From Rickettsiales bacterium (GTDB lineage: Bacteria > Pseudomonadota > Alphaproteobacteria > UBA8366), in contig PBOZ01000043.1 of NCBI GenBank assembly GCA_002724555.1, positions 1-35,573 on the forward strand: DNA of 35,573 nucleotides. Reading direction: 5' to 3'. The notes beneath the pieces were generated by a model, which saw only the letters and a program-made list of their open reading frames with translations, was not told where the DNA came from and did not search any database. Shown here one piece after another: positions 2,092 to 23,262 of the stretch. The translations under genes and the position numbers were made by a program. The stretch's first letter is position 1, and each line of letters begins with the position of its first letter.

Positions 2092-2095
2092 AGAT

Positions 2096-2968
2096 TTATG
2101 CGTCTCGGTATTGGTCGATAATATCGGTCCAACGGGCTAGGTCGTCTGGTCCGCTGGCCGCCGAGCCCTTAAGCCCGATCATCGGCACGATGGGCAGCAA
2201 GACGCGATCCACACCTGCTTTGACCAGTTCAGGCAAGTCTTCAACCCGCTCCGGCATGCTAACGGTAAACTCAATCGCGTTCGGATCGCGGTCGTGTTCT
2301 TCCGCTGTCCTTTTCGCCAGATCGAACAAATCGGTCGGGACGCCGCGCGCCGGGAAAAACCCGTCACCAAGACGCCCGGCACGTCGCGCCGCCGCTTTGG
2401 AGTGGCCACCAACGATAATCGGCACCGAACCGTTGACCGGCTTCGGTTGCATGTGCGCCCCTTTGAAACTAAAGAACTCACCCTCATAGGTCGGGAGGTC
2501 CGACGACCAGAGTTCGCGCATCACACCTATATATTCATCGGTCGCGCGGCCGCGCGCCTCAAACGGTGCTTTGATGGCGGCGAACTCCTCTTCCATCCAG
2601 CCCACACCAATGCCAAGCAGCACACGGCCGCCGCTCATGAAATCTAAGGTCGCGACCTGTTTTGCCGCCACAATCGGATTTCGCTGCGGGACGATCAGGA
2701 TACCGGTGCCAAAATTGATCTTTTCCGTCCGGGCAGCGACATAACTCATCCAAATGAGCGGGTCGGGCAACGGGATATCGTTCTTGCCGCCGGCCATCTT
2801 GCCATCGTCGGTATAGGGATAAGCGGACTGGTAACCTTCTGGGACAACAACGTGATCAACTGTCCAGGCAGATTCAAAACCGGCAGCTTCCGCCGCCTGC
2901 ACCAACTCGACCGCGTTCTCCGGCTTCGTGTAACGCGCCGTGTTACAGTATCGGACCCCAAACTTCAT
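2096..2968 (-). CDS. LLM-class oxidoreductase, tandem paralogue of the next gene
   Basis: A 290-residue LLM-family protein starting MKFGVRYCNT. By hand alignment 39 of its first 61 residues match the neighbouring protein at 1219-2091, so the pair looks like a tandem duplication. The same landmarks occur: WTVDHVVVPEGY, FGTGILIVPQR, SGGRVLLGIGVGWMEEEF and PIIVGGHSKAAARRAGR. I chose the ATG at 2968, which overlaps the upstream LLM stop as ATGA and follows a GAGG ribosome site; the longer reading from 2983 adds only five residues (MCEAE). Predicted F420-dependent by subfamily resemblance to Rv2161c-type enzymes. Differences between the copies are concentrated in the active-site loop region around residues 45-70, which would fit divergence in substrate. 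Confidence 0.88.
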   Translation of the reverse strand: MKFGVRYCNTARYTKPENAVELVQAAEAAGFESAWTVDHVVVPEGYQSAYPYTDDGKMAGGKNDIPLPDPLIWMSYVAARTEKINFGTGILIVPQRNPIVAAKQVATLDFMSGGRVLLGIGVGWMEEEFAAIKAPFEARGRATDEYIGVMRELWSSDLPTYEGEFFSFKGAHMQPKPVNGSVPIIVGGHSKAAARRAGRLGDGFFPARGVPTDLFDLAKRTAEEHDRDPNAIEFTVSMPERVEDLPELVKAGVDRVLLPIVPMIGLKGSAASGPDDLARWTDIIDQYRDA

Positions 2969-3885
2969 TTCAGCCTCGCACAAAGTTCAAATAGTTCTTC
3001 AATTGCTTTGAATTGATTACCTTGGGCTGAAGACGGCACCAGGATCGGCGTCTTGATACCAGCGTCATACCAAGCCTCGAGCCCTTCCAGAACTTTGGAC
3101 GGCGGCCCAAAAAGTGTGTTGTCGGAGAGCCAACGTTCACTCAAGCACTTGCCGATTTCTTCCGGGTCATTGCCGTTTGCAATCGCTTTCTCGACACTAG
3201 CCATCTCTTCTTCGTAGCCCGCTTCCTTCCAATAATTCCGATAGTTCGACAACTGCGCATAATGGGTCAGCGTCTTACGGTTAACCGCCGCCGCCGTCGC
3301 CTCGTTCTCATAGATGCAGGTCGGGATCATGTCGCCGATAAAGAAGTTTGTGTCGTTCCGCTTTTCCACCGGTACTTCTGCCAACGAAATGGCCATGTGA
3401 GAGCGGGCGCCGTTTGCGAACACCATGCCCTCGGCAATCTCAGCTGCCAGTCCAATCATTTTCTTGCGGAGCGTCGCCAGCACGATCGGCGGCAACTCGC
3501 CGATCATCTTGGCGCTACGAACTGTCGAAACGAAATCGCGAATATCAGACAGGGGCTTGCCGACTGTCACACCGTAGCGCGAGTGCGAAGGCGCATGCGC
3601 TACGCCAATGCCAAACTTGAACCGGCCATTCGAAAGCTCGTGAATAAAGGCCGCATGCTGCGCCAAGTCAAGTGGCGCCCGGAAGTAGATTGGGCAAATC
3701 GACGTGCCAAACTCGATCTTATCCGTCGCCATCGCCAACGCGGTCGCAAGCGCCATGTTGTCGCCGAGTGAAGGCATGTAGATACCCGAAAAGCCGCGCT
3801 CCTCTGCCTCCTTTGCAAATTCAATAATCCGATGGCGGCGGCTTGGAACTGCGGCCAATGATATAGCGGGCATCTCGATGGGCAT
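2965..3885 (-). CDS. LLM-class oxidoreductase (divergent)
   Basis: A 306-residue LLM-superfamily protein, first gene of a three-LLM run read on the minus strand. It shows AKEAEERGFSGIYMPS, a short second segment ATDKIEFGTSICPIYFRAPLDLAQ, ELSNGRFKFGIGVAHAPSHSRYG (the GxG strand and the following loop) and a C-terminal FGPPSKVLEGLEAWYDAGI, a segment common in LLM oxidoreductases. It lacks the long insertion between strands 2 and 3 seen in its two downstream neighbours and the final PIIxGG strand is replaced by PIVLATLRKKM. It overlaps the next gene by four bases (ATGA). The family fits either F420 or FMN; no closer assignment is made. Confidence 0.8.
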   Translation of the reverse strand: MPIEMPAISLAAVPSRRHRIIEFAKEAEERGFSGIYMPSLGDNMALATALAMATDKIEFGTSICPIYFRAPLDLAQHAAFIHELSNGRFKFGIGVAHAPSHSRYGVTVGKPLSDIRDFVSTVRSAKMIGELPPIVLATLRKKMIGLAAEIAEGMVFANGARSHMAISLAEVPVEKRNDTNFFIGDMIPTCIYENEATAAAVNRKTLTHYAQLSNYRNYWKEAGYEEEMASVEKAIANGNDPEEIGKCLSERWLSDNTLFGPPSKVLEGLEAWYDAGIKTPILVPSSAQGNQFKAIEELFELCARLK

Positions 3886-3910
3886 CTACTTTCCTCTCAC
3901 ACAAAACCAT

Positions 3911-3977
3911 CCTTCCCGCGCAGGCGGGAAACCAATTCGGCGCCCGGTGTTTCTCGATTCCCGCCTGCGCGGGAAGG
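3911..3977. repeat. Perfect 20-bp inverted repeat, REP/MITE-like intergenic element
   Basis: The 20-bp arms at 3911-3930 and 3958-3977 are exact reverse complements, separated by 27 bp. Each arm is itself imperfectly palindromic around TTCCCGC...GCGGGAA. The element lies between two divergently transcribed LLM genes. Such GC-rich palindromic units are commonly dispersed in proteobacterial genomes; only one copy of this form is visible here. It could form a strong hairpin in the leader of the downstream + strand LLM gene. Confidence 0.75.
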
Positions 3978-4060
3978 ACGGAAGGTTGTCTGTATTCATT
4001 AGACGCCAATTTAAGTATGAACTTAGACGTTCAAACGCCTCGGGACAGGGAGCATTCACG

Positions 4061-4909
4061 GTGCATATCGGATTTTTTAGCTACAACACGGAATACGGCA
4101 TTCGGGCGGACGACCTAGCGCAAGAGCTTGAGGACCGCGGTTTTGAGTCGCTCTGGGTGGGCGAGCATACGCATATTCCAGCGAGCCGAGAAACCTCCTT
4201 CCCTGGCGGCGGCGATCTGCCGAAGCCCTACTATCACATGAGCGACCCTTTTGTGACCCTTGGGATGGCCGCCGCGGTCACCAAGAAACTCCTACTCGGC
4301 ACAGGTATCAGCCTCGTGGTCGAACATCACCCGATATCGTTAGCAAAACAGGTGGCAACACTCGACCACTATTCGGGCGGCCGGTTTCTCTTTGGCATTG
4401 GTGGCGGTTGGAATAAGGAAGAGATGGAAAACCACGGCTTTCCCTTCGATCGACGCTGGAAGCTGTTACGCGAACGCGTCGAAGCGATGAAAGAGATCTG
4501 GACCGAGGACGAAGCTAGTTACGATGGGGAGTTCGTGAATTTTGAGCGTATTGTCTCTAACCCCAAACCATCACAACACCCACACCCGCCGGTTTTCATG
4601 GGGGGCGCCACCGACATGTCACTCAAACGAGTCGCACGTTATTGCGAAGGATGGATGCCAATCGACGTCTTGCTCCGCGACCCCAGCGCCATGGTTGCGA
4701 AAATGCGCCAGGTCGTCAGCGAAGAAGGTCGAGACCCGGACGAAATTGAACTTTCCGCCTTCTGCCAACGCTCCCGCGACGGCGACGCACTCAAAAAATT
4801 CCGCGCGGCAGGCTTCACCCGCGCCATTGTCGGCTTACCCAATCGCGACCGCGACGAGGTTCTAAAATTTATCGATGGTTATGTAGGATTGGGCGAAGAG
4901 ATCGGGTAG
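4061..4909 (+). CDS. LLM-class oxidoreductase, Rv2161c-like (predicted F420-dependent)
   Basis: A 282-residue LLM-family protein. The start is taken as GTG at 4061, ten bases after an AGGGAG ribosome site, because the protein then begins on the first barrel strand (HIGFFSYNTEYG). The open frame runs back to 3878, but that stretch reads through the palindromic repeat at 3911-3977 and is unlikely to be translated. Motifs: RGFESLWVGEHTHIP, LLGTGISLVVEHHPISLAKQ, SGGRFLFGIGGGWNKEEMENHG, RWKLLRERVEAMKEIWT and PPVFMGGATDMSLKR. GGGWN.EE..NHG is characteristic of predicted F420-dependent LLMs of this group. It is divergent from the three LLMs to its left. The substrate is unknown. Confidence 0.87.
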   Translation: MHIGFFSYNTEYGIRADDLAQELEDRGFESLWVGEHTHIPASRETSFPGGGDLPKPYYHMSDPFVTLGMAAAVTKKLLLGTGISLVVEHHPISLAKQVATLDHYSGGRFLFGIGGGWNKEEMENHGFPFDRRWKLLRERVEAMKEIWTEDEASYDGEFVNFERIVSNPKPSQHPHPPVFMGGATDMSLKRVARYCEGWMPIDVLLRDPSAMVAKMRQVVSEEGRDPDEIELSAFCQRSRDGDALKKFRAAGFTRAIVGLPNRDRDEVLKFIDGYVGLGEEIG

Positions 4910-7871: not shown

Positions 7872-8921
7872 ATGAAACTCGGACTATCGGTCGGCTATTC
7901 CGGCGCACAAATGGAGTTGCCCGTCGAGCGAATACTGCGGGCGGAGAAACTTGGCTACGACAGCGTCTGGACAGCCGAAGCTTACGGTTCCGACGCCATC
8001 ACGCCGTTGGCCTATCTTGCAGCCATCACCAAGCGGATCAAGCTCGGCACCGGCATTATTCAGGTTTCCGCCCGCACACCGGCCAACTGCGCCATGAGCA
8101 TGGGAACGGTAGACGCACTCGCGGGCGGCGGTCGCTGTATTGCGGGGCTCGGCGTCTCGGGTCCACAGATCGTCGAAGGCTGGTACGGCCAACCTTGGGG
8201 CCGGCCTTATTATTGGCTGAAAGACTACGCCACCATCATGCGCAAAATATGGAAGCGCAAGGAAGGCCTAACCCACGACGGTAAACAATTACAGCTTCCT
8301 TATTCGGGCGATGACGGGCTTGGCGTCGGTAAACCACTGAAATCGATCTTGCACATGAACCCGGATATTCCGATTTATATCGGGTCCGGCAACGAGGCGA
8401 CGGTGCGCCTCACGGGCGAGATCGCCGACGGTTGGCTGCCACTCGGCTTCTATCCCGGCACGATGGACGAGTATAAACCGTGGCTCGAAGAAGGGTTCAA
8501 GCGCGCCGGAAACGGCAAAGGGTGGAACAATTTCGAAATCCAGGCCCGTGTCTTCGTTGATGTCGATGAGGACGTCAAAGCCTCCATCGACCGGCTCAAA
8601 CCGCGTGAGGCACTTTATATCGGCGGAATGGGCCACAAAGATAAAAATTTTCATAAGGACATTTTCGTCCGGCGCGGATTTCAGGCTGAAGCCGACCGCA
8701 TCCAGGAACTTTATCTTGCCGGACATAAGGAGGAGGCCATCGCGACGGTGCCTGACGAGTGGATCGACTCGCGCGGATTAATGGGACCGCCCAACCGGAT
8801 CAAACAACGCTTCAAAGCCTGGGAAGATTCAGGTGCGAACAGCCTGACTGTCGCCCCAGCACAAGAGGCTGCCGTCGACCTTATGGCGGAACTCGCGCGC
8901 CTTAATCCGCCGCGGGATTAG
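7872..8921 (+). CDS. LLM-class oxidoreductase, Rv3520c-like (predicted F420-dependent)
   Basis: A 349-residue LLM-family protein. SVWTAEAYGSDAITPLAYLAAITKRIKLGTGI, the GLGVSGPQIVEGWYGQPWGRP segment and IPIYIGSGNEATVRLTGEIADGWLP match the subfamily of mycobacterial Rv3520c, predicted to use F420. The stretch GPQ.VEGWYG.P.GRP is nearly diagnostic. The ATG lies behind an AGAGGGA ribosome site. Its 3' end overlaps by 20 bp the 3' end of the convergent MFS gene. A second member of the same subfamily lies at 11896-12942. Placement after CoA-transferase and MaoC genes suggests a CoA-thioester substrate, which is an inference only. Confidence 0.9.
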   Translation: MKLGLSVGYSGAQMELPVERILRAEKLGYDSVWTAEAYGSDAITPLAYLAAITKRIKLGTGIIQVSARTPANCAMSMGTVDALAGGGRCIAGLGVSGPQIVEGWYGQPWGRPYYWLKDYATIMRKIWKRKEGLTHDGKQLQLPYSGDDGLGVGKPLKSILHMNPDIPIYIGSGNEATVRLTGEIADGWLPLGFYPGTMDEYKPWLEEGFKRAGNGKGWNNFEIQARVFVDVDEDVKASIDRLKPREALYIGGMGHKDKNFHKDIFVRRGFQAEADRIQELYLAGHKEEAIATVPDEWIDSRGLMGPPNRIKQRFKAWEDSGANSLTVAPAQEAAVDLMAELARLNPPRD

Positions 8922-11895: not shown

Positions 11896-12942
11896 CTAAA
11901 GTGCGTTTTCAGCAAGAACGCGAAGCGCATCAACACTGGCACCACGCGTCACAATCGTGTGTACCTGTCCTTTATCGCCAGCCTTTTTCCAATCTTGAAG
12001 GCGTTCAATAATACGCTCCTTCGGACCGACAAGGGCCGTCCGATCAACCAATTCATCCGGCACGGCATCGACCGCCTCTTTTCGGCGTCCGGCCAGGAAG
12101 TGGTCCTGAATTTCAACAGCGGCGTCGACGTAACCGATACGTTTGGCAAAATCGTTATAAAAATTCTTATCGCGGGCCCCCATGCCTCCAATGTAGAAAG
12201 CCAGGTTCTCGCGTACCGGCTGGCGGGCTTCCTCTAGGTCGTCGTTCATGCGGACCTGGCAGTAAGCCAGCACCATGAAATCCGACATCGATTTACCACC
12301 GCCCGCTTTCTCCAACCCGGCATTGATATCCGGCTCGAAGACTTCAAAGCGGTCCGGGTCCATGTAAATCGGGATGAAACCATCAACGATTTCCGCGGCC
12401 GCTTTGACGCCGGAAGGCGAAATTGCAGCGGAGACGATCTTCAAGTTCGGATCACCGTGCAAAACGCTTTTTAAAGGCTTGCCGAGACCCGTCGTCCCAT
12501 CGCCCGTCATCGGTATTTGATAATGGAACCCTTCATGGCGAAGCGGCTCTCTCCGCGCCAACACCTTGCGAATAATCTCCACATATTCACGCAGGCGCGT
12601 CAGCGGCCGTCCATATGGCACACCATACCAACCTTCGATCACCTGCGGACCGGACGGGCCAAGCCCTAGGATAAAGCGTCCACCGGAGAGATGATCAAGG
12701 GTCATACAAGCCATTGCCACACTCGAGGGCGTTCGTGCAGGCATCTGAACGATCCCAGTACCCACCTTTATTTTACTTGTCTGCGCCAAAACCCATGCAG
12801 CGGGTGTAAGCGCGTCCGATCCCCACGCTTCTGCCGTCCAAACTGAGTCATATTCGAGGTTTTCGGCCTCACGAATGTAATCCATATCGACGGCCGCCTT
12901 ATTCCCGCCGGTTCCAAGGGTAAGGCCTAATTTTACTGCCAT
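11896..12942 (-). CDS. LLM-class oxidoreductase, Rv3520c-like (predicted F420-dependent)
   Basis: A 348-residue LLM-family protein, closely patterned on the gene at 7872-8921: SVWTAEAWGSDALTPAAWVLAQ, KVGTGIVQMPARTPSSVAM, GLGPSGPQVIEGWYGVPYGRP and FYIGGMGARDKNFYNDFAKRIGY. These match the Rv3520c subfamily predicted to use F420. The ATG at 12942 (MAVKLGLTLG) is chosen because a GGAAGGA ribosome site sits just upstream; the frame is open to 12981. It is the first gene of the minus-strand operon reaching to the MFS gene and is divergent from the F420 biosynthesis operon across 176 bp, so both may be switched together. Substrate unknown. Confidence 0.88.
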   Translation of the reverse strand: MAVKLGLTLGTGGNKAAVDMDYIREAENLEYDSVWTAEAWGSDALTPAAWVLAQTSKIKVGTGIVQMPARTPSSVAMACMTLDHLSGGRFILGLGPSGPQVIEGWYGVPYGRPLTRLREYVEIIRKVLARREPLRHEGFHYQIPMTGDGTTGLGKPLKSVLHGDPNLKIVSAAISPSGVKAAAEIVDGFIPIYMDPDRFEVFEPDINAGLEKAGGGKSMSDFMVLAYCQVRMNDDLEEARQPVRENLAFYIGGMGARDKNFYNDFAKRIGYVDAAVEIQDHFLAGRRKEAVDAVPDELVDRTALVGPKERIIERLQDWKKAGDKGQVHTIVTRGASVDALRVLAENAL

Positions 12943-13118
12943 TTTTCGATCCTTCCGATATATCATGACCCTCTTTAACAAAGACGGCCCTTGAGAGCTT
13001 ATTCGAATTTAGCCTAGATAACCGCGAAAGCTAGATTACGTAGGTCTTGCAGCCACCTAAAACACATCAAATACTGGCGGCAACCTATCCTCGAAACAAT
13101 CAATTGGAAAACGTACGA
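12943..13118. promoter_or_regulatory. Divergent intergenic region between an LLM operon and the F420 operon
   Basis: This 176-bp gap must hold promoters for both the minus-strand LLM/SDR operon and the + strand npdG-cof operon. A weak candidate for the + direction is TTGAGA at 12991-12996 with TAGATA at 13015-13020 (18-bp spacing), but only three bases of the -10 match consensus. No convincing operator palindrome was recognised. Confidence 0.3.
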
Positions 13119-13799
13119 ATGACAGATACTTATAAAATCGCCATTGTCGGTGGCACGGGAGATTTAGGTTCGGGACTTGCAAAGCGCTGGTCTCGCGCTG
13201 GTCATCAGATCATCATAGGGTCCCGAGATGCAGGGCGCGCAGCGGATACAGCGGTAAAATTTAATGATGATGCAGGAACCACTTCAATTTCCGGTTTAGA
13301 AAATACCGACGCCGCAGAAGCTGGCGATATTGTTGTATTAACCGTGCCTTACGAAAATCATGCGTCAACACTCGATGCCATTCGAAATAAGGTGCAAGGT
13401 AAGATCGTTATCGATGTCACAGTCCCCCTAATGCCACCTAAAGTCCGGACCGTGCAATTGCCAGAAGGCGGCAGCTGCGCCAAGGCCGCACAATCCCAAC
13501 TTGGCGAAAGTGTGCGTGTCGTCTCGGCATTTCAAAATGTCGCAGCTGCCCACCTGGCTGATTTGGAACACGATATTGATTGCGACGTGCTCGTTTGTGG
13601 CAATGATCCGGAAGCCAGAGAAGTTGTCGTCAAACTGTCCAAAGATGCCAGCATGAAGGCATGGCATGCCGGCGTCATAGCCAACTCGGCGATCGCTGAA
13701 GCCTTGACCTCAGCGCTGATCTTTATGAATGGCCGATATAAAATTGACGGTGCGGGCATTCGCATCACAGGCACGCCGGGATCGGCCGTAAAGCCGTAG
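13119..13799 (+). CDS. npdG: NADPH-dependent F420 reductase (F420H2:NADP oxidoreductase)
   Basis: A 226-residue protein with the canonical N-terminus of the F420-dependent NADP reductase family: IAIVGGTGDLGSGLAKRW (GGTGDLG at 11-17), then IIIGSRDAGRAADTA, where SR binds the NADPH 2'-phosphate. Further landmarks are VVLTVPYENH, KIVIDVTVPL and RVVSAFQNVAAAHL. The enzyme transfers hydride between NADPH and F420; in bacteria it is thought to charge F420 for reductases, replacing F420-dependent glucose-6-phosphate dehydrogenase, none of which is seen here. ATG at 13119 is chosen because the frame open from 13047 adds an unconserved tail. The ribosome site is weak. It heads the F420 operon, with cofE 10 bp downstream. 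Confidence 0.93.
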   Translation: MTDTYKIAIVGGTGDLGSGLAKRWSRAGHQIIIGSRDAGRAADTAVKFNDDAGTTSISGLENTDAAEAGDIVVLTVPYENHASTLDAIRNKVQGKIVIDVTVPLMPPKVRTVQLPEGGSCAKAAQSQLGESVRVVSAFQNVAAAHLADLEHDIDCDVLVCGNDPEAREVVVKLSKDASMKAWHAGVIANSAIAEALTSALIFMNGRYKIDGAGIRITGTPGSAVKP

Positions 13800-13809
13800 A
13801 ATTGGCCAG

Positions 13810-14577
13810 ATGCCAGACCGCTTAACCCTCACCGCCCTTAAGGGCATTCCCCTCGTCAAGCCGGGGGATGACCTCATCCAACTGGTTGCCAACGCGATCG
13901 CAGAAAGTGGCGAACAATTGATGAATGGCGACATTCTAGTGGTTGCGCAAAAGATCATCTCAAAGTCGGAGAATTGCCTCGTCAACATCACGGATATTGA
14001 ACCGAGCGATCGTGCGAGAGAACTCGCTCTTGAAGTTGATAAGGACCCCCGCGTCGTCGAAATAATATTGAGTGAAAGTCGGTCGATCATCCGCAAAAAA
14101 CCAGGAGTTTTAATCGTTGAGAATAAGCTTGGGCTCATTATGGCGAATGCCGGTATTGACCACTCCAACGTGGAAAGTGAAATACCGGAACAAACGCTTC
14201 TTTTGCTTCCAGATAACCCAGACGCGAGCGCCAAGCGATTGCGCAACGATATCCGATCCCAATTCGGTGTCGACGTTGGTATCATTATCAATGACAGTGT
14301 CGGGCGCCCATGGCGCATCGGAACAATGGGCCTTGCCATCGGCATTTCAGGACTTCCCGCGGTAACCGATTTACGAGGTGACAGAGATCTCTTTGGGCGC
14401 GAACTTCGCGTGAGTGAAGAGGCTGTTGGTGACGAGTTGGCAGCAGCAGCCTCGTTGCTACAGGGCCAAGGGGCGGAGGGTAAGCCAATCATCCTTGTGC
14501 GCGGTTACCAAAGCCCTGCGCCATCACAAACTGCTACAGCAGCATTGCGCGCACCGAGTGAGGATATGTTCCGATGA
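13810..14577 (+). CDS. cofE: Coenzyme F420-0:L-glutamate ligase
   Basis: A 255-residue protein with CofE/FbiB N-terminal domain features: GDILVVAQKIISKSEN (about 40-55), ANAGIDHSNVE (112-122), and NDSVGRPWRIGTMGLAIG (161-178), the segment that binds GTP and metal in archaeal CofE. It adds L-glutamate residues to F420-0 with GTP hydrolysis. Mycobacterial FbiB is about 450 residues, having a second FMN-binding nitroreductase-like domain; here that domain is wholly absent, as in archaeal CofE. The stop overlaps the cofD start by four bases (ATGA), so the two are translationally coupled. How many glutamates it adds (two, as in archaea, or more) cannot be told. Confidence 0.94.
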   Translation: MPDRLTLTALKGIPLVKPGDDLIQLVANAIAESGEQLMNGDILVVAQKIISKSENCLVNITDIEPSDRARELALEVDKDPRVVEIILSESRSIIRKKPGVLIVENKLGLIMANAGIDHSNVESEIPEQTLLLLPDNPDASAKRLRNDIRSQFGVDVGIIINDSVGRPWRIGTMGLAIGISGLPAVTDLRGDRDLFGRELRVSEEAVGDELAAAASLLQGQGAEGKPIILVRGYQSPAPSQTATAALRAPSEDMFR

Positions 14578-15527
14578 CTACGGCAAATATCCTAGCTCTT
14601 TCAGGTGGCGTTGGCGGTGCGAAATTAGCGCTCGGCCTTATGCATACGCTGCCCTCGGAAAGTCTCACAATCGTCGCTAATACAGGTGATGATTTTACAC
14701 ATCTCGGCCTTCGCATTTGTCCTGATATAGATACACTAGTCTACACGCTCTCGGATTTGGCCGATAAGGAGAGAGGATGGGGGCGGGCCTCTGAGAGTTG
14801 GAATTTTATGTCGGCGCTTAAGAGACTAGGTGGCGAAGATTGGTTCAATCTCGGCGATAGTGATATGGCAATGCATGTCTATCGAACACAAGAATTGATT
14901 GAAGGAAAAACACTTTCAGAAGTGACAGCCAAAATCGCGAATGCCCTTGGCATAGGCACCCGTATTCTGCCAATGACCAACGATACGGTCGCAACTGTCG
15001 TGGAAAGTGAAAATGGCCCGCTTCCATTCCAGCATTACTTCGTTAGAGATCGATGCAAACCCGCCGTTAGAGGCTTCCGGTTTACTGGCATAGACGATGC
15101 AACGGCCAATCCAGACGCGATGGCATTGATTAAAAATGCCCAACTAGATTGCATTATCATTACGCCATCAAACCCGTTCGTCAGTATCGACCCAATCCTC
15201 TCGTTACCAGACATGCGCGAAGTGTTAATCGAACAAACCGCCCCTATTGTTGCGGTATCGCCCATTGTTGGCGGTTTGGCAATTAAAGGTCCAACAGCCA
15301 AAATGATGGCTGAACTTGGCTTGCCATCTTCAGCGCTGGCGGTCTCGGAGCATTACTGCGACCTCTTGGATGGCATGATTATTGATGAGGTTGACCATCA
15401 ACAAGCAGCAGATATAGCCGCACTTGGCATGAAAGTTCGTGTCGCCCAAACAGTCATGCGAACCCTGGAAGACCGTAAAAAATTAGCACAAATTTGTTGC
15501 GATTTTGCTAAGGATATCGCTTCGTGA
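14574..15527 (+). CDS. cofD: 2-phospho-L-lactate (or phosphoenolpyruvate) transferase of F420 synthesis
   Basis: A 317-residue CofD/FbiA protein. GGVGGAK (11-17), NTGDDF (36-41), CPDIDTLVYTL (49-59) and the LGDSDMAMHVYRT stretch near residue 95 are all family signatures. The enzyme transfers the phosphoester moiety of a guanosine-diphosphate-activated C3 acid onto the hydroxyl of Fo, giving F420-0 or its dehydro form. Overlaps cofE upstream and cofC downstream by four bases each, a compact coupled set. Length is normal for the family (about 310-330). It acts in the cytoplasm with CofC, which makes its short-lived GDP-linked donor. Confidence 0.95.
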   Translation: MTTANILALSGGVGGAKLALGLMHTLPSESLTIVANTGDDFTHLGLRICPDIDTLVYTLSDLADKERGWGRASESWNFMSALKRLGGEDWFNLGDSDMAMHVYRTQELIEGKTLSEVTAKIANALGIGTRILPMTNDTVATVVESENGPLPFQHYFVRDRCKPAVRGFRFTGIDDATANPDAMALIKNAQLDCIIITPSNPFVSIDPILSLPDMREVLIEQTAPIVAVSPIVGGLAIKGPTAKMMAELGLPSSALAVSEHYCDLLDGMIIDEVDHQQAADIAALGMKVRVAQTVMRTLEDRKKLAQICCDFAKDIAS

Positions 15528-16171
15528 CAGTCGCCCTTGTACCCATGAAAGACCTCCCCAACGCTAAACAACGTCTTTCATCAATCTTATCCAAAGAAGA
15601 ACGCATAGGCCTCGTAAATGCAATGTTAGGGGACGTACTTGCCGCCCTCGCCAAAGCAGAAACTATAGAAGCAGTAAACATAATAGCGCATGATCAAAAT
15701 TTCTCAGAGTTTAATGTCGGCTTTATCCAGGAAGCCAAAAATGCCGGCTACAACGAAGCCGTAGGTTTTGCGCTTGAATGCGCGGAAATTGCCGATGCCT
15801 CAGCGGTCTTGGTGGTGCCCGGAGACATCCCTTTAGTGAAGGCTTCAGAAATTAATGCACTGGCTGCCAAAACTAAAGAACCCACGGTCCGAATTGCTGG
15901 CGCACGAGACGGTGACGGGACAAACGGCCTGTTGATATCCCCTCCAAGGCAGATGAATACCAACTTTGGAATTGGCAGCTTTGCACGCCATCAGAAAATT
16001 GCAAGAAACACTGGTGCGCACCTAGAGACCATAAAGGGAGAGGGAATTTCCTTCGATATCGATACACCAGACGATTTAATCGCCTATTGCGCTGTTGACG
16101 CGCAAAGCGAAACTCACACATTCCTTGACTTGAGTGGAATCCGCAGGCGACTGTTAGACGAGAACTCATAA
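15524..16171 (+). CDS. cofC: Phospholactate/3-phosphoglycerate/PEP guanylyltransferase of F420 synthesis
   Basis: A 215-residue CofC/FbiD nucleotidyltransferase. The start is GTG, overlapping the cofD stop as GTGA. Motifs are VALVPMKDLPNAKQRL (3-18, nucleotide loop), VPGDIPL (98-104, metal-binding Asp), RDGDGTNGLL (128-137), NFGIGSFARH (147-156) and FDIDTPDDL (177-185). It condenses GTP with a phosphorylated C3 acid for use by CofD. Which acid (2-phospholactate, phosphoenolpyruvate or 3-phosphoglycerate) is known to vary between lineages and is not determined here. The gene is markedly AT-richer than cofD by eye (one 60-base line near 15661 is about a third G+C). Confidence 0.93.
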   Translation: MTVALVPMKDLPNAKQRLSSILSKEERIGLVNAMLGDVLAALAKAETIEAVNIIAHDQNFSEFNVGFIQEAKNAGYNEAVGFALECAEIADASAVLVVPGDIPLVKASEINALAAKTKEPTVRIAGARDGDGTNGLLISPPRQMNTNFGIGSFARHQKIARNTGAHLETIKGEGISFDIDTPDDLIAYCAVDAQSETHTFLDLSGIRRRLLDENS

Positions 16172-16205: not shown

Positions 16206-18653
16206 ATGTCCAAACCCACAGAATATAAGCGTCCAGAAAGAAACGCAGCTCGTTTGCTCGCCAAACGGACCGATCTCTCCCAAATGATGGTGGAAGCATC
16301 CGAATTGCGTGACCTGCATTTTGGCAGAACGATCACTTATTCGCGTAAAGTTTTCATCCCACTCACCAAATTATGCCGCGATGTCTGCCATTATTGCACC
16401 TTCGCACAACCACCCCGAAATCTTGAGGAGGCGTTCCTCTCACCAGAACAAGTTTTAGAAATCGCCCGTGATGGGGCGGCAGCTGGATGTAAAGAAGCGT
16501 TATTCACGCTCGGCGATAAACCAGAACTGCGCTATCAAGCGGCGCGAGATGCGCTGGCCTCCTTCGGGCACGAAACGACATTGTCATATCTTCGCGAAAT
16601 GGCTCTTTTAGTTTTTGAAGAAACTGGGCTTCTGCCACATTTGAACCCAGGCGTGTTGGAGGCAAACGATTACGCTGCACTACGCGAAGTTTCCGCCAGT
16701 ATGGGGGCGATGCTAGAGAGTACATCAGCCCGCCTATTACAAAAAGGTCACTGTCACTACGGATCGCCAGATAAAGATCCTGAAGTTCGTATCGCTTCCA
16801 TGGCAGAAGCGGGGCAGCAAGGAGTGCCTTTCACAAGCGGAATCTTAATTGGGATCGGTGAAACACGTCTGGAACGTATTGAATCCCTACTAGCGCTTCG
16901 GGACCTGAACGACCTTTATGGTCACATTCAAGAAATCATCATACAGAACTTCCGGGCCAAGCCAGATACGTTAATGGCCAAGGCGCCAGAACCCTCGCTT
17001 GAGGATCTACAATGGACGATTGCGGCTGCACGCCTGCTGTTTGGCCCGAAGATGTCGATACAGGCCCCACCGAACCTAAGTGGCGAGAATGCAGCTGACC
17101 TTATTCCGGCTGGCATTAATGACTGGGGCGGCGTCTCGCCAGTCACGCCCGATCACGTCAATCCGGAAGCACCCTGGCCGCACCTGGCTGCTTTATCGCA
17201 AGCGACCGCCCGGCAGGACAAAATTTTAGTTGAGCGGCTGGCTGTATATCCCGAATATATTTTTGATGGTGAAACTTGGCTTGACGTTGCCTTCCGCTCA
17301 GAGATCCTAAGGCGGATCGATAGCGATGGCCTAGCGCGAACGGACAATTGGTCTCCAGGGATAGGCGAGGGCAATCCGATACCAATGCCAATGATTGCAC
17401 CAGACCTTGGCGCAAGCTCTGAGCTTAATGATATTCTTGCGCGCGGGGATGAGGGTGACGACCTCACAGAACGCGAAATAATTCGTCTCTTCGCCGCGCG
17501 CTCTGGCGAAGTCGACGAAATCGCAAGTGTAGCGAACAATATCCGCCAACGGGTCAACGGCGATGCGGTTAGCTACGTTGTTAATCGGAATATCAACTAC
17601 ACCAACGTCTGCTACTTTGGCTGTAAGTTCTGCGCATTTTCAAAGGGCAAAACCCATGAGGCCCTGCGTGGCAAACCTTACGATTTAGCGATGGGTGAGA
17701 TTATCCGACGGGCCGAAGAAGCCTGGGACCGCGGAGCAACTGAAGTATGCCTACAGGGAGGCATTCACCCAGATTATACCGGTGAGACCTATTTAGAGAT
17801 TCTGCGGGCTATTAAATCAGCATTACCCGAGATGCACGTTCACGCCTTTACACCGCTAGAAGTTTTTCAAGGCGCTAAGACGCTTGATCTAACGCTAGAC
17901 ACCTATCTCGGAATGTTGCGCGACGAAGGCCTGGGTACCTTGCCTGGGACCGCTGCGGAAATTCTAGATGACGAAGTCCGCGCAACGCTTTGCCCTGACA
18001 AAATCAACACGAACCAGTGGCTTGAAGTAATGGAAACGGCGCACGGCCTTGGCCTTCGCAGTACCGCCACCATCATGTTCGGCCATATCGAGCGTCCAGT
18101 TAATTGGGCGCGTCACCTTTTGCGCCTTCGTGATCTACAGAGGCGAACCAATGGCTTCTCAGAACTCGTCCCACTGCCCTTTGTTCATATGGAGGCCCCT
18201 ATTTATTTGAAAGGTGCCGCGCGCAAGGGACCCAGCTGGCGCGAAACTTTGTTGATGCACGCCATCTCGCGCATCGCATTACATCCGTATTTTACGAACA
18301 TACAAACTTCTTGGGTGAAGCTCGGCGCTGATGGTCTTGCAGCTTGCCTCGATGCTGGCTGTAATGACGTTGGCGGAACTCTTATGAACGAGACGATCAC
18401 ACGTGCAGCCGGTGCTGCACACGGCCAGGAGATGCCACCGATACAAATGGAAGTGATCATCCGCGGTGCGGGCCGCAAACCACGACAGCGCACAACGCTT
18501 TACGGAGACGCGCCCGAAATACAACGCACACGTTCTTTCGACGCAGCACCAGTCACACCGATTGTGGAGACCCCCCTCCGGCGAAATGGCAGAAATCAGG
18601 GACGCGGTACGCTCGTGCGCCCTGGCCTTAACGTGCCAAGCGCTGCCGAATAA
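16206..18653 (+). CDS. fbiC: Fused Fo synthase (CofG-CofH), radical SAM
   Basis: An 815-residue fused 7,8-didemethyl-8-hydroxy-5-deazariboflavin (Fo) synthase. The N-terminal CofG half carries CRDVCHYC (Cys57, Cys61, Cys64), and the C-terminal CofH half carries CYFGCKFC (Cys469, Cys473, Cys476); both are CxxxCxxC [4Fe-4S]/SAM clusters. Other marks are NLSGENAADLIPAGINDWGGVSPVTPDHVNPE in the first half and VCLQGGIHPDYTGETYLEIL in the second. It joins tyrosine and 5-amino-6-ribitylaminouracil to form Fo, the deazaflavin of F420. The fused form is the actinobacterial arrangement; methanogens use separate proteins. A 34-bp gap follows cofC, without a strong ribosome site, and an LLM gene follows after 47 bp. 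Confidence 0.95.
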   Translation: MSKPTEYKRPERNAARLLAKRTDLSQMMVEASELRDLHFGRTITYSRKVFIPLTKLCRDVCHYCTFAQPPRNLEEAFLSPEQVLEIARDGAAAGCKEALFTLGDKPELRYQAARDALASFGHETTLSYLREMALLVFEETGLLPHLNPGVLEANDYAALREVSASMGAMLESTSARLLQKGHCHYGSPDKDPEVRIASMAEAGQQGVPFTSGILIGIGETRLERIESLLALRDLNDLYGHIQEIIIQNFRAKPDTLMAKAPEPSLEDLQWTIAAARLLFGPKMSIQAPPNLSGENAADLIPAGINDWGGVSPVTPDHVNPEAPWPHLAALSQATARQDKILVERLAVYPEYIFDGETWLDVAFRSEILRRIDSDGLARTDNWSPGIGEGNPIPMPMIAPDLGASSELNDILARGDEGDDLTEREIIRLFAARSGEVDEIASVANNIRQRVNGDAVSYVVNRNINYTNVCYFGCKFCAFSKGKTHEALRGKPYDLAMGEIIRRAEEAWDRGATEVCLQGGIHPDYTGETYLEILRAIKSALPEMHVHAFTPLEVFQGAKTLDLTLDTYLGMLRDEGLGTLPGTAAEILDDEVRATLCPDKINTNQWLEVMETAHGLGLRSTATIMFGHIERPVNWARHLLRLRDLQRRTNGFSELVPLPFVHMEAPIYLKGAARKGPSWRETLLMHAISRIALHPYFTNIQTSWVKLGADGLAACLDAGCNDVGGTLMNETITRAAGAAHGQEMPPIQMEVIIRGAGRKPRQRTTLYGDAPEIQRTRSFDAAPVTPIVETPLRRNGRNQGRGTLVRPGLNVPSAAE

Positions 18654-18700: not shown

Positions 18701-19645
18701 ATGACGGTAGGTATCGGCTTGGGCCTTTCAAATTATACCTTTTCATCCGCTGGTGGTTATTGGGACTGGGTGCATATGTGCGACGACGAAGGCGTCGACT
18801 CCATCTGGCAGACAGACCGCCTCGTCTCTCGTGAGCCATTTCTTGAATGCATGAGCGCCATGGCTGCCCTGGCGGGTGCCACAAAAAAATTAAAGTTTGG
18901 CATGAACGTCGCATCTTTGGGCATTCGCGACCCACTTATCACGGCTAAGGAATGTGCAACCATCGACTACCTGTCTAACGGTCGTCTGCTTCCTGCCTTT
19001 GGCCTTGGCAGCAACCGATCGCGCGACTGGATTGCTAGCGGTCGAGCAACCAAAGCCCGCGGCCAGCGAATGAACGAGGCACTGGAAATCATAACACGCC
19101 TCTGGAAAGAGGAAAAAGTGACCTTTGAGGGAAAACATTTTCAATACACAGAGGCAACGATCTCTCCTCGCCCGGCCCAGGATCCGCTTCCCTGCTGGAT
19201 CGGTGGCAGCGCTCGAGCTGCGGTTGAGCGAACCGTCAACTATGGCACAGGATGGCAGGCATCTTTCCAAACTCCTGAAGAAGCAGGCAAAGTTGTAGCC
19301 GACATAATGCAGTACGCCAAGGAGAAGGGTAAACACATGGACCCAGATCACATGGGCATGGGTTTCGGTGTCCGCTTCGGCTCCTGGGATGATCCCATCG
19401 TGCAGCAAGCCGCATCTGCTTTTGAGAAACGCAGTGGCCGGGATCCAAAAACCGGCATGGCGGTCGGCGACGCAGAAGATATTCTTGAGATGATCTGGAG
19501 CTATATTCCACACGGACTTTCCAAGTTCATCCTTCGCCCCCTCGGCGATGGCGATGAGGAAATGATGGCGCAATCTCGCCGAATAATCGACGAAGTTCTG
19601 CCTCACGCCAAAGTTTTCACGGAACGTCGCAAGATGGCAAGCTGA
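18701..19645 (+). CDS. LLM-class oxidoreductase in the F420 operon
   Basis: A 314-residue LLM-family protein starting MTVGIGLGLSNYTFSS, behind GGGAGA. Barrel landmarks: DEGVDSIWQTDRLVSREP, LKFGMNVASLGIRDPLITAKECATIDYLSNGRLLPAFGLGSNRSRDW, EALEIITRLWKEEKVTFEGKHFQY and PLPCWIGGSARAAVERT. The segment NGRLLPAFGLGS corresponds to the SGGR..xGxG strand. It differs from the Rv2161c- and Rv3520c-like proteins here and is not given a subfamily. Because it lies just after fbiC (47 bp) and before the NUDIX gene (19 bp), it belongs to the biosynthesis transcript, so it is the strongest candidate for an F420-dependent enzyme with a housekeeping role, or one acting on the cofactor itself. Confidence 0.88.
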   Translation: MTVGIGLGLSNYTFSSAGGYWDWVHMCDDEGVDSIWQTDRLVSREPFLECMSAMAALAGATKKLKFGMNVASLGIRDPLITAKECATIDYLSNGRLLPAFGLGSNRSRDWIASGRATKARGQRMNEALEIITRLWKEEKVTFEGKHFQYTEATISPRPAQDPLPCWIGGSARAAVERTVNYGTGWQASFQTPEEAGKVVADIMQYAKEKGKHMDPDHMGMGFGVRFGSWDDPIVQQAASAFEKRSGRDPKTGMAVGDAEDILEMIWSYIPHGLSKFILRPLGDGDEEMMAQSRRIIDEVLPHAKVFTERRKMAS

Positions 19646-20171: not shown

Positions 20172-21047
20172 TTACTCATTCAATTTTCTATCCACTGCAG
20201 GATCGAGCATCTCGCTGACATAGTGGTTGCCGAAACCGGCGTCGTTGACGCGTTTTAGTGAATCCAATACACCGTCTACAAGCATTGTCTTCCGCCCCAG
20301 ACTCTCAGCAAACTCGGCAAAGTATCGGATGTCTTTCCAGGAATTCGAAAGTGAAAATTCATGCCCTCGATAGTTGCCTTGCATCGCCGGCGTGATCATT
20401 TTTTCAAAAGTACCGGATTTAGCAGCTCCGCCGGACATGGCCATGTGTAGTTTTGTCCAATCGACACCTGCCTGTCGCGCGATGCTGTAGGACAAAGCTA
20501 AGAGCTGGCCCGTTGACTGGGTGACGAAATTGTTCATCAATTTTGCGGTGTGTCCCATACCCGTTGACCCGAAATGGAGTATAGTTGTGCTGTAGGATTG
20601 AATTAATGGTTTAACCCGATTAAACACTCCTTCCTCTGCACCAACTAGGCTTGTCAACTCACCGAGCGCTGCCTTTTCTGGATTGGCTGTTACCGGCGCG
20701 TCAACGAAATCAACACCAATAACTCTTAGTTCCTGATCAACCCGCATAGTCGATTGCGGGCATGCCGTCGTCGCATCAACGATGGTTTGTCCTGCGCGCA
20801 GATCAGGTTTTAACTGAGCGATAACGTTTTCGACAACTTCCGAGTCGCTGAGACATAAAAATATTACTTCACTCGCATGCGACAGGCTCGACAAGGTCTC
20901 AACTTCCAGCGCGCCCTTTCCTACCAAGTCATCTACTGGTGCACGATTGCGATGGGCGATGATCGTCAAATTATTTCCTGACTTCATCAGGTTTTCCGCC
21001 ATGCCGTGTCCCATTAAACCAACGCCAATAAATCCGACCTTAGTCAT
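20172..21047 (-). CDS. 3-hydroxyisobutyrate dehydrogenase-family oxidoreductase
   Basis: A 291-residue beta-hydroxyacid dehydrogenase. The N-terminal GFIGVGLMGHGMAENLMKSG gives the GxGxxG dinucleotide loop (8-13), DAPVTANPEKAALGELTSLVG corresponds to the substrate loop (usual form DAPVSGG.xGA..GTL), and GHTAKLMNNF carries the catalytic lysine. It oxidises or reduces 2- or 3-hydroxy acids with NAD(P). The substrate loop departs from the common form, which may point to an unusual hydroxyacid. The ATG follows GAGGG, and the gene is divergent from an LLM (21118). The convergent gap to the NUDIX gene is 78 bp without an obvious terminator. 6-phosphogluconate-type or tartronate-semialdehyde reductase activity cannot be excluded. 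Confidence 0.88.
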   Translation of the reverse strand: MTKVGFIGVGLMGHGMAENLMKSGNNLTIIAHRNRAPVDDLVGKGALEVETLSSLSHASEVIFLCLSDSEVVENVIAQLKPDLRAGQTIVDATTACPQSTMRVDQELRVIGVDFVDAPVTANPEKAALGELTSLVGAEEGVFNRVKPLIQSYSTTILHFGSTGMGHTAKLMNNFVTQSTGQLLALSYSIARQAGVDWTKLHMAMSGGAAKSGTFEKMITPAMQGNYRGHEFSLSNSWKDIRYFAEFAESLGRKTMLVDGVLDSLKRVNDAGFGNHYVSEMLDPAVDRKLNE

Positions 21048-21117
21048 TCACCCTCATCCTTTTCAGTTCTCGACCTATTATAGATCTAGCGATCAAACGA
21101 CTGGAGGCGAAAACTAT

Positions 21118-21972
21118 ATGGACATCGGAATCGTAATGCCTTGTTCAGCAATTACCCCGCCCGACTTAATTGCCGAAACCGCTAGGGCAATTGAAGAACG
21201 GGGCTTCGCATCGATCTGGGCACCAGAGCACGTCATCTTCTTCGAGGAATACCAGTCTCAATACCCTTATGCGGACCACGGTAAGCTTCACGGCTTTGAC
21301 CACGGTATGATGGAACCATGGACAACCTTGAGTTTCATCGCGTCGAATACCAGTCATGTAAAACTGGGTTCAAGTATCTGCCTCGTGCCGCAACGCAATC
21401 CGGTATATACCGCCAAACAAGTTGCCGACGTCGATTTTCTCTCAAATGGGCGCGTAATCTTTGGTGTTGGTGCCGGCTGGCTTAAAGAAGAGTTTGACGC
21501 ACTGCAGGTTCCATTCGAACGTCGGGGTGCCCGCACTCGTGACTATATAAAAGTCATGCAAGCGCTCTGGACAATGGAGCAGCCATCTTACACAGGTGAG
21601 TTCTATAAACTCCCCAACTGCACCCAAAGTCCAAAGCCGGTTCAAAATCCGCATCCCCCGATATTTTTTGGCGGAGAAAGTCGGCCCGCACTCCGGCGTG
21701 TTGCCGAACTCGGACAAGGTTGGATGGGCGCAAGCCTGATGCCGGAAGATTTACCCGAGAAGATTGCGCTTCTAGATGAACTCCTTGCCGAAGCAGGACG
21801 AAACCGAGGCGACATAGACATCTACACATTGCCAAACCAAGCGCCAAAAGCGGAACTCTTTCCTCGATACGAAGACTTGGGCGTAAAGCAAGTCATACAT
21901 CTGGTGCCTATGAAGAATATCGACGACGTCCGCCAACGACTCGATACATTAGTAAAAATATCTATGAGATAG
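21118..21972 (+). CDS. LLM-class oxidoreductase, Rv2161c-like (predicted F420-dependent)
   Basis: A 284-residue LLM-family protein. The frame is open from 20947, but ATG at 21118 follows a TGGAGG ribosome site and starts the barrel (MDIGIVMPCSAIT), so it is chosen. Motifs: RGFASIWAPEHVIFFEEY, KLGSSICLVPQRNPVYTAKQVADVDFLSNGRVIFGVGAGWLKEEFDAL (GVGAGW..EEF), FERRGARTRDYIKVMQALWT and PPIFFGGESRPALRR. It belongs with the 1219, 2096 and 4061 proteins in the Rv2161c-like group. A divergent start with the hydroxyacid dehydrogenase at 20172-21047 (70 bp apart) suggests a shared promoter region. An AT-rich hairpin follows the stop codon directly. Confidence 0.88.
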   Translation: MDIGIVMPCSAITPPDLIAETARAIEERGFASIWAPEHVIFFEEYQSQYPYADHGKLHGFDHGMMEPWTTLSFIASNTSHVKLGSSICLVPQRNPVYTAKQVADVDFLSNGRVIFGVGAGWLKEEFDALQVPFERRGARTRDYIKVMQALWTMEQPSYTGEFYKLPNCTQSPKPVQNPHPPIFFGGESRPALRRVAELGQGWMGASLMPEDLPEKIALLDELLAEAGRNRGDIDIYTLPNQAPKAELFPRYEDLGVKQVIHLVPMKNIDDVRQRLDTLVKISMR

Positions 21973-22085
21973 TATATATTAAATATTTTTATTTAATTAT
22001 TATTATAATATCATTATTTATTATAAATTCATTGTTTATTATTAATATTTAATTTTATATTCAAATGATGATATTTTAAAAAATT
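21973..22085. other. Very AT-rich intergenic segment
   Basis: A stretch of about 113 bp with almost no G or C, made of TATTA, TTATTA and AATATT runs, in a window that is otherwise balanced. No ORF, RNA gene or known element is seen. A near-inverted pair occurs at AATATCATTA (about 22007) and TGATGATATT (about 22066). Together with the following 22086-22215 stretch, which is ordinary in composition, it forms a 243-bp gap between two LLM genes that converge. Confidence 0.6.
21978..21997 (+). terminator. AT-only stem-loop just after the LLM stop codon
   Basis: ATTAAATA at 21978-21985 and TATTTAAT at 21990-21997 are perfect 8-bp complements around a TTTT loop, five bases past the stop of the LLM gene. 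The stem lacks G-C pairs, so it would be weak as an intrinsic terminator and the call is tentative. Confidence 0.3.
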
Positions 22086-22215
22086 ATGCAGCCCCAAGAA
22101 AGAAGTCTGACTCACAAAAACATAAACTCCGCATTAAAGAGATACCGGTTTGAGACCGACATTCGGAACCACTCAGCAATTGATAAAAATTGCCTGATCA
22201 CTATTTAGGGTCGCA

Positions 22216-23244
22216 TTACAAACCATTCCTAACTTTGGGCGCTACCTCGGCAGCGAACAAACGCATACAATCCAAAGTCACTTCCTGCGGCATACCCGCC
22301 CAATCCATGCTCATAATGAGGTGATTCGTTCCAACTTTTCGGTGCAAATCAATGATCTGCTCCGCGACCTCATCAGGTGAGCCAAGCAAAAACCGGTCTC
22401 CAATTAAATCATCAAAGGCTTGATCAAATTTGCTGTCATCATCTGGCAGCTCATCGCTCTGTCCCCAATCAATATAATTTTCGTATTTGCCCGCGAGGTA
22501 CGGACCGCACAACCGAAGTGCTTCAGCCTTCGACGGTGCCACGAAAACTTCACGCCGCATAGGAAGCTCGTCGGGGAAGGGTTTGCCTGCCGCATCAAGG
22601 GCTTTTTTATATATTTCCATCTGACGAACGATTGTCGATATCTCACTATGAGGGTTGATATACCAGCAATCTCCCATACGGGCCGCACGTTCGATTGCCG
22701 GATCCGCATTCGCGCCTATCCAAATTGGTGGATATGGATTTTGTAATGGCTTCGGTAGACATGTCGCACCGTCAAGTTCAAAATGAGAACCGCACATGTC
22801 GACTACTTCCTCGGTCCAAAGGCGTTTTATTGCGATCAAATTCTCTTCAAACCGCCTCGCGCGTTCGCTTCGGTTGGTACCAAACGCCTTCAACTCAACT
22901 TCACGATACCCAAGCGCTGCCCCGACGATCAATTTGCCACCGCACATTACGTCGATCGTAGCGAGTTGCTCTGCAATATCTAAAGGCTTCTGCAAAGATA
23001 GTAGAATGATACCGGCATTCAGACGCATGTTCGGTGCCTCGGCCGATAACCGCGCTAGAATTGGGAACTGTTGAAATGCCTGATACGGGGCAGTGCTATA
23101 ATGCGACGTCTTAGTCAGAGAGTCATAGCCAAGCTCATCGGATAAACGCACCACTTCGAGCAAGTCCTCAAATTTTTGGGTTATATCCGCTTCCATCGGA
23201 TATTGTGTGCGCAAAGCTAATCCAAATTGAAATTTCTTAGCCAT
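22216..23244 (-). CDS. LLM-class flavin- or F420-dependent oxidoreductase
   Basis: A 342-residue LLM-family protein. The second ATG (23244, MAKKFQFG) is preferred to 23250, since AGGG then lies eight bases upstream. Segments: ELGYDSLTKTSHYST, NMRLNAGIILLSLQKPLDIAEQLATIDVMCGGKLIVGAALGYREVELKAFG, RARRFEENLIAIKRLWTEEVVDMCGSHFEL and PPIWIGANADPAIERAARMGDCWYI. GGKLIVGAALGYR.VE is typical of LLMs often annotated flavin-dependent, and F420 is less certain than for the other LLMs here. It starts 18 bp downstream of an exported metallophosphoesterase, both on the minus strand. A flavodoxin-like reductase divergent from that gene could supply reduced FMN if this is a two-component enzyme. Confidence 0.87.
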   Translation of the reverse strand: MAKKFQFGLALRTQYPMEADITQKFEDLLEVVRLSDELGYDSLTKTSHYSTAPYQAFQQFPILARLSAEAPNMRLNAGIILLSLQKPLDIAEQLATIDVMCGGKLIVGAALGYREVELKAFGTNRSERARRFEENLIAIKRLWTEEVVDMCGSHFELDGATCLPKPLQNPYPPIWIGANADPAIERAARMGDCWYINPHSEISTIVRQMEIYKKALDAAGKPFPDELPMRREVFVAPSKAEALRLCGPYLAGKYENYIDWGQSDELPDDDSKFDQAFDDLIGDRFLLGSPDEVAEQIIDLHRKVGTNHLIMSMDWAGMPQEVTLDCMRLFAAEVAPKVRNGL

Positions 23245-23262
23245 CAGCATTTCCCTAAATCG

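What the first reader, a model, noticed from the sequence alone, without database searches (positions are those of the whole stretch)
13810..16171. No FbiB reductase domain: which C3 donor makes this F420?
CofE has no C-terminal FMN domain, which in mycobacteria reduces dehydro-F420-0 formed from phosphoenolpyruvate. None of the other genes here is an obvious replacement. Either CofC uses phospholactate or 3-phosphoglycerate (known in methanogens and Mycetohabitans), or an unlinked or new reductase works, possibly the LLM at 18701 or the flavodoxin-like protein at 24316.
Basis: partly seen in the sequence, partly recalled or inferred. Interest (0 to 1): 0.6.

Follow-up and report, generated by a model that had tools for sequence, protein, structure and literature searches.

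The report
Bacterial F420 operon lacking its reductase
This alphaproteobacterium carries a complete gene set for the redox cofactor F420 except for the reductase domain that mycobacteria need to finish the molecule, and the same gap turns out to be the rule in proteobacteria, so which starting metabolite they use and whether the cofactor is ever reduced at that bond is an open, easily tested question.

Summary
CofE (13810-14577, 255 aa) is a whole CofE domain with no FMN domain; the operon is fno-cofE-cofD-cofC-fbiC. The assembly (64.9% complete) has five nitroreductases; none resembles FbiB-C/FbiE (best 25 bits; the cof-linked Thermomicrobium roseum nitroreductase scores 163). This is not an accident of one bin: among 38 other CofC-positive alphaproteobacterial genomes (completeness 90% or more), 37 have no FbiE, and the one that does (G251) carries it inside the operon between cofE and cofD. 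None of 50 CofD-positive proteobacterial genomes has one. Weaker hits, where checked, are BluB.

3-PG is unlikely: the diagnostic residue (Mycetohabitans S162) is Gly, as in PEP-type enzymes, and no Ser/Thr occurs in about 110 proteobacterial CofCs.

Most likely CofC/CofD take PEP and make dehydro-F420-0, which is reduced by an enzyme outside the FbiE family or used unreduced. 2-phospholactate is nearly as likely. Sequence alone cannot decide; LC-MS of a cultured relative (Paracoccus, Ancylobacter, Microbulbifer) would.

The parts
13047..13799 (+). npdG/fno, NADPH-dependent F420 reductase
   Evidence: TIGR01915 218.7 bits, cut-off 149.8
13810..14577 (+). cofE, stand-alone F420-0:L-glutamate ligase, 255 aa, no C-terminal nitroreductase domain
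   Evidence: TIGR01916 278.9 bits over 7-255; only PF01996 in Pfam
14574..15527 (+). cofD, transferase that joins the activated C3 acid to FO
   Evidence: TIGR01819 309.5 bits, cut-off 257.45; groups with bacterial CofDs
15524..16171 (+). cofC, guanylyltransferase that selects the C3 donor; Gly at the 3-PG diagnostic position, Tyr at the Mtb FbiD L92 position, Asp at the Msmeg T152 position
   Evidence: TIGR03552 153.4 bits; aligned to 7p97, 2i5e, 6bwg and about 110 relatives
16206..18653 (+). fbiC, fused CofG/CofH FO synthase
   Evidence: NF006687 1138 bits, cut-off 1018
18701..19645 (+).
   Evidence: PF00296 139.6 bits; relative of 50% identity or more at only 10 cof loci
   Evidence: PF03358 22.9 bits, below cut-off 24; no relative at any cof locus

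Best explanation
This is an ordinary proteobacterial F420 operon that most likely starts from phosphoenolpyruvate. CofC would join PEP to GTP, CofD would pass enolpyruvyl phosphate to FO giving dehydro-F420-0, CofE would add glutamates and Fno would charge the deazaflavin with NADPH. No FbiB-C/FbiE-family reductase is present, so the enol bond is either reduced by an unlinked enzyme of another family or left as it is, the dehydro form serving as the cofactor. Shown here: the gene set, the absence of FbiE, the Gly at the 3-PG diagnostic position, and that the absence is general in proteobacteria. Inferred: PEP as donor and the fate of dehydro-F420.
For: CofC has Gly at the position that is Ser in the 3-PG enzyme and Gly in PEP-using Mtb FbiD and in T. 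roseum CofC. CofD falls in the bacterial group with T. roseum and actinobacterial FbiA rather than with M. mazei CofD (identity 44.4, 40.1 and 38.6%), and the bacterial CofDs assayed with their own CofC favour the PEP or 3-PG product (PMC8764529). PEP is abundant and 2-phospholactate is not thought to be significant in most organisms (PMC7253369). Dehydro-F420 has the same deazaflavin redox properties (same paper). No FbiE: own genome, family, class, 50 further cof-positive genomes. The one alphaproteobacterium with FbiE (G251) has it inside the operon next to a CofC with the mycobacterial-type GTGT motif, showing that the search finds FbiE when it is there.
Against: All CofCs assayed with the M. 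jannaschii CofD other than the Mycetohabitans type, including Paracoccus and Oligotropha, preferred 2-phospholactate (PMC8764529), although the authors suspect an artefact of that partner. The three CofCs that sit with an FbiE (Mtb, T. roseum, G251) share Thr at the Msmeg T152 position, but only 4 of 109 FbiE-less ones do, and the window has Asp, which could mean a different donor. PEP use without FbiE demands an unknown reductase or a less stable cofactor. No biochemistry was possible.
Confidence: 0.45

Rival explanations
1. 2-phospho-L-lactate is the donor, as proposed for methanogens, and no reduction step is needed. The 2-phospholactate could come from pyruvate kinase acting on lactate as a side reaction.
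For: Explains at once why an otherwise complete and horizontally mobile operon (chromosomal and plasmid copies) almost never carries a reductase. Proteobacterial CofCs assayed so far turn over 2-phospholactate best (PMC8764529). Pocket positions differ from the FbiE-linked enzymes: Thr at the Msmeg T152 position in 3 of 3 FbiE-linked but 4 of 109 FbiE-less CofCs. Papers on 2-phospholactate as a metabolic side product exist (titles and abstracts only; the pyruvate kinase side reaction is from my own knowledge).
Against: No dedicated source of 2-phospholactate is known in bacteria; CofD is of the bacterial type, whose assayed members favour EPPG or GPPG; the comparison of pocket positions rests on three sequences and was partly post hoc.
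Confidence: 0.35
2. 3-phosphoglycerate is the donor and the product is 3PG-F420, as in Mycetohabitans.
For: That route also needs no reductase, and an unidentified producer exists in biogas sludge (PMC8764529).
Against: The diagnostic Ser/Thr is Gly here and in most relatives, with no Ser/Thr among about 110 proteobacterial CofCs. The L92/M91 position is a bulky Tyr. Mutation of that Ser to residues other than Thr removed 3-PG preference, and Paracoccus and Oligotropha CofC did not take 3-PG (PMC8764529).
Confidence: 0.05
3. A separate FbiE exists in the 35% of this genome that is missing from the assembly.
For: Completeness is only 64.9%, and a stand-alone FbiE is known in T. roseum.
Against: Near-complete CofC-positive family members G003, G004, G005, G007 and G009 (94-100%) have no TIGR03553 hit at E<=1e-9; the hits in G008 and G001 are BluB. 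In G251 and T. roseum the FbiE gene is next to cof genes, and here it is not.
Confidence: 0.05
4. One of the generic nitroreductases of the genome (for example the C54:107482 type) has taken over dehydro-F420 reduction.
For: The C54 type is in 17 of 25 CofC-positive and 8 of 35 CofC-negative relatives. The C24 type is confined to two families in which CofC is the rule and is near the operon in two genomes. Five cof loci of one clade carry another linked nitroreductase.
Against: Both patterns follow family borders and so may reflect kinship only; C24 neighbours look catabolic (dioxygenase, hydrolase, transporter); C24 is absent from near-complete CofC-positive genera of the same family; none scores like FbiE.
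Confidence: 0.1

Closest known systems
Proteobacterial fno-cofE-cofD-cofC-fbiC operons (Paraburkholderia PGU19, Paracoccus alcaliphilus, Croceicoccus, Aromatoleum plasmids; Paracoccus and Oligotropha are reported F420 makers)
   Same: Same genes, stand-alone CofE, no linked nitroreductase
   Different: Gene order varies; CofC pocket residues differ (Leu at the L92 position in several, Tyr here)
Mycobacterial FbiA/FbiB/FbiC/FbiD pathway
   Same: Homologous CofD, CofC, FbiC and the CofE half of FbiB; Gly at FbiD G163
   Different: No FbiB C-terminal reductase; L92 is Tyr, the Msmeg T152 position is Asp
Thermomicrobium roseum pathway with stand-alone FbiE
   Same: Bacterial CofD/CofC, CofD 44% identical
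   Different: T. roseum has a nitroreductase with 163 bits to TIGR03553 next to cofD-cofC; nothing alike here
Mycetohabitans 3PG-F420 pathway
   Same: Proteobacterial, stand-alone CofE, no reductase
   Different: CofC diagnostic Ser162 is Gly here; M91 is Tyr

Membership tests
FbiB (bifunctional ligase/reductase) | C-terminal nitroreductase-fold FMN domain (TIGR03553) | tested here: not met
   CofE ends at residue 255 with the ligase domain; no PF00881/TIGR03553 hit
CofE, stand-alone F420-0:glutamate ligase | TIGR01916 above cut-off, single domain | tested here: met
   278.9 bits, cut-off 180.65
FbiE / stand-alone dehydro-F420 reductase pathway | FbiE-type nitroreductase in the genome, about 150 bits to TIGR03553 | tested here: not met
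   Own best 25 bits in a 65% assembly; none in near-complete family members; yardsticks T. roseum 163 and G251 148 bits
CofC, 3-PG-activating type (Mycetohabitans) | Ser or Thr at Mrhiz CofC position 162 | tested here: not met
   Gly, motif NFGIGSF
CofC/FbiD, PEP- or 2-PL-type | Conserved metal Asps, carboxylate-binding Ser166 and no Ser/Thr at position 163 | tested here: met
   Ser166 equivalent and Gly163 equivalent present; Asp motifs GD and DIDTP present in the alignment
FbiD, PEP-specific | Product with cognate CofD is dehydro-F420-0 | not testable with these tools
   Needs an enzyme assay
Archaeal 2-phospholactate pathway | Cognate CofC/CofD pair specific for 2-PL | not testable with these tools
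   CofD is of bacterial type by tree, which is indirect

The most novel reading that the evidence does not exclude
Proteobacterial F420 producers as a group make dehydro-F420 from PEP and either use it unreduced as their working cofactor or reduce it with an enzyme of an undescribed family; FbiE is the exception (one alphaproteobacterium, G251), not the rule.
Probability: 0.45. Interest if true: 0.65.

Novelty: new member of a known kind. Interest (0 to 1): 0.45.

Why it matters
F420 is drawn as one molecule made by one of three entry routes, but the route has been established in only a few organisms. If most proteobacterial operons lack the one known dehydro-F420 reductase, then either their cofactor is a different molecule or a second reductase or a bacterial source of 2-phospholactate is waiting to be found. 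This affects how F420 is detected (mass, fluorescence peak), how F420-dependent enzymes are assayed, and how the cofactor is made in E. coli. G251 and its FbiE-less neighbours G222 and G235, which have the same gene order apart from the extra gene, give a ready natural comparison.

Tried and rejected
TIGR03553 hits of 48-79 bits in relatives looked like FbiE at first; nine of them were scanned and all nine are BluB (252-285 bits against a cut-off of 150); the single 68.7-bit hit in G296 was not checked. The nitroreductases linked to cof loci in L048, L056, L058, L069, L071 score 51 bits to TIGR03553 and 72 to BluB (representative L056), so I did not count them as FbiE. The C24-type nitroreductase near the operon in G023 and G040 was followed and set aside because its usual neighbours are catabolic and it is absent from other CofC-positive genera. 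The C54 type was set aside because its distribution follows family borders. A search for any other recurrent oxidoreductase near cof loci found only diverse LLM proteins (84 loci) and SDRs (25). CofD positions that separate FbiE-linked from FbiE-less enzymes: only one weak column. The AEM 2020 paper on Thermomicrobia and the ISME J 2017 survey are not held, so their content is cited from PMC8498797 and PMC8764529 or from memory; that the T. roseum nitroreductase at L123 is the very protein assayed there is inferred from its place in the cof cluster.

Full report
What is there. The window is contig G000:C36 of a metagenome-assembled genome, 2.56 Mb, 64.9% complete; the closest named records are Rhodospirillaceae and other alphaproteobacterial bins. 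The reported genes are real: npdG/fno 13047-13799, cofE 13810-14577, cofD 14574-15527, cofC 15524-16171 and fbiC 16206-18653, all above at least one curated cut-off. CofE ends with the ligase domain, and its stop overlaps the cofD start, so the FbiB reductase domain is truly missing.

Is there an FbiB-C homologue elsewhere in the genome? Five nitroreductases (PF00881) were found. Against the FbiB-C model TIGR03553 the best score is 25 bits. As a yardstick, the nitroreductase next to cofD-cofC on the T. roseum megaplasmid scores 163 bits. A direct search with that protein finds only weak matches, 31 bits at best. Because a third of the genome is missing, the family was searched too: CofC is in all eleven family genomes held, and near-complete ones (G003, G004, G005, G007, G009; 94-100%) have no TIGR03553 match at E<=1e-9. 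The hits of 48-79 bits in relatives that I scanned are BluB.

How general is it? In a sample of 241 alphaproteobacterial genomes (drawn at 90% completeness or more, plus the window's own), 39 have CofC. Only one genome, G251, has an FbiE-like protein at E<=1e-24 (148 bits), and there it lies in the operon, fbiC-fno-cofE-NTR-cofD-cofC. Its tree neighbours G222 (L232) and G235 (L240) have the same order without it. In 50 further genomes chosen only because they encode CofD (alpha- and gammaproteobacteria, among them isolates of Microbulbifer, Ancylobacter and Bradyrhizobium), none reaches E<=1e-18 except one BluB-level hit of 68.7 bits; these sets may overlap in part. Plasmid copies in Paraburkholderia, Sinorhizobium, Paracoccus, Agrobacterium, Croceicoccus, Aromatoleum, Leisingera and Variovorax show no annotated linked nitroreductase either (the plasmid gene tables are incomplete). 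So the gap is the rule in proteobacteria and FbiE the exception.

Which donor? Hasan et al. (PMC8764529) showed that Ser or Thr at Mrhiz CofC position 162 (Gly163 in Mtb FbiD) marks tolerance of or preference for 3-PG, and that the cognate CofD filters the product. The window CofC has Gly there. Among about 110 proteobacterial CofCs the position is Gly in most, Asp in 20 (mostly gammaproteobacterial bins), Asn in one and Ala in two, never Ser or Thr. Thus 3-PG is unlikely. The L92 position of FbiD (M91 in Mycetohabitans) is Tyr in the window and mostly Leu, Gln, Tyr or His elsewhere. At the position of Msmeg T152, a published specificity site, the three CofCs that go with FbiE all have Thr (GTGT motif) but only 4 of 109 FbiE-less ones do; G251 has it while its closest FbiE-less relatives do not. 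This is a small, partly post hoc comparison, but it hints that FbiE-less CofCs may not handle the donor in the mycobacterial way. CofD belongs with bacterial CofDs (tree rooted on M. mazei).

Replacement reductases. The LLM at 18701 has a relative of at least 50% identity at only 10 cof loci and the flavodoxin-like gene at none; CofD is found at 122 of the loci searched. Apart from the F420 genes themselves the only oxidoreductases that recur often near cof loci are diverse LLMs and SDRs. Two nitroreductase types of the own genome were profiled: C54 (17 of 25 CofC-positive, 8 of 35 CofC-negative relatives) and C24 (confined to two families, with catabolic neighbours); neither pattern separates function from kinship.

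Judgement. I put PEP as the entry at 0.45 with a non-FbiE fate of dehydro-F420-0, because PEP is abundant and bacterial CofDs assayed with their own CofC do not favour the lactyl intermediate; 2-phospholactate at 0.35, because it explains the missing reductase most simply; 3-PG at 0.05. The literature states that Alphaproteobacteria such as Paracoccus and Oligotropha make trace F420 (PMC8498797); I found no paper in the held library that determines the C3 donor in an FbiE-less alphaproteobacterium, but key papers are not held.

Noticed in passing
L222:8088-14206 (G251:C10): The only alphaproteobacterial F420 operon found with an FbiE-like nitroreductase, placed between cofE and cofD; its CofC has the GTGT motif of the Mtb and T. 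roseum enzymes.
   Followed up: partly
L061, L072, L076, L077, L085, L086, L090, L093, L094, L099, L101, L102, L104, L107, L109-L112, L114, L122: About 20 CofCs, mostly from gammaproteobacterial bins, carry Asp (Asn in L092) at the C3-specificity position that is Gly in PEP enzymes and Ser in the 3-PG enzyme; no characterised enzyme with Asp there was met. A possible further donor class.
   Followed up: partly
window 15524-16171 and all cof loci: CofC is by far the least conserved pathway protein: 5 of 112 loci reach 40% identity to the window CofC, against 120 of 122 for CofD and 97 of 97 for FbiC.
   Followed up: no
L048:5088-5792, L056:9744-10445, L058:20546-20923, L069:8151-8942, L071:8268-8909, L225:17011-17766, L256:1484-2125: A group of cof loci carries a conserved nitroreductase (about 60-70% identical to each other where compared) near the operon that is no closer to FbiE than BluB is; function unknown.
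   Followed up: partly
window 1219-4909, 7872-8921, 11896-12981, 18701-19645, 20947-23250: Nine luciferase-like (LLM) oxidoreductases surround the F420 operon, together with CoA transferases, an acyl-CoA ligase, an arylmalonate decarboxylase-like protein and an OYE-family protein: looks like an F420-dependent catabolic island.
   Followed up: no
L165:6735-8177: An actinobacterial Miltoncostaea plasmid F420 cluster has stand-alone CofE and no annotated nitroreductase, but an FAD-dependent oxidoreductase (ferredoxin-NADP reductase-like by eye) right after cofE.
   Followed up: no
L119, L069, L071: Bins labelled Klebsiella pneumoniae and Rhizobium sp. Q54 carry proteobacterial F420 genes that look misassigned (binning or naming errors).
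   Followed up: no
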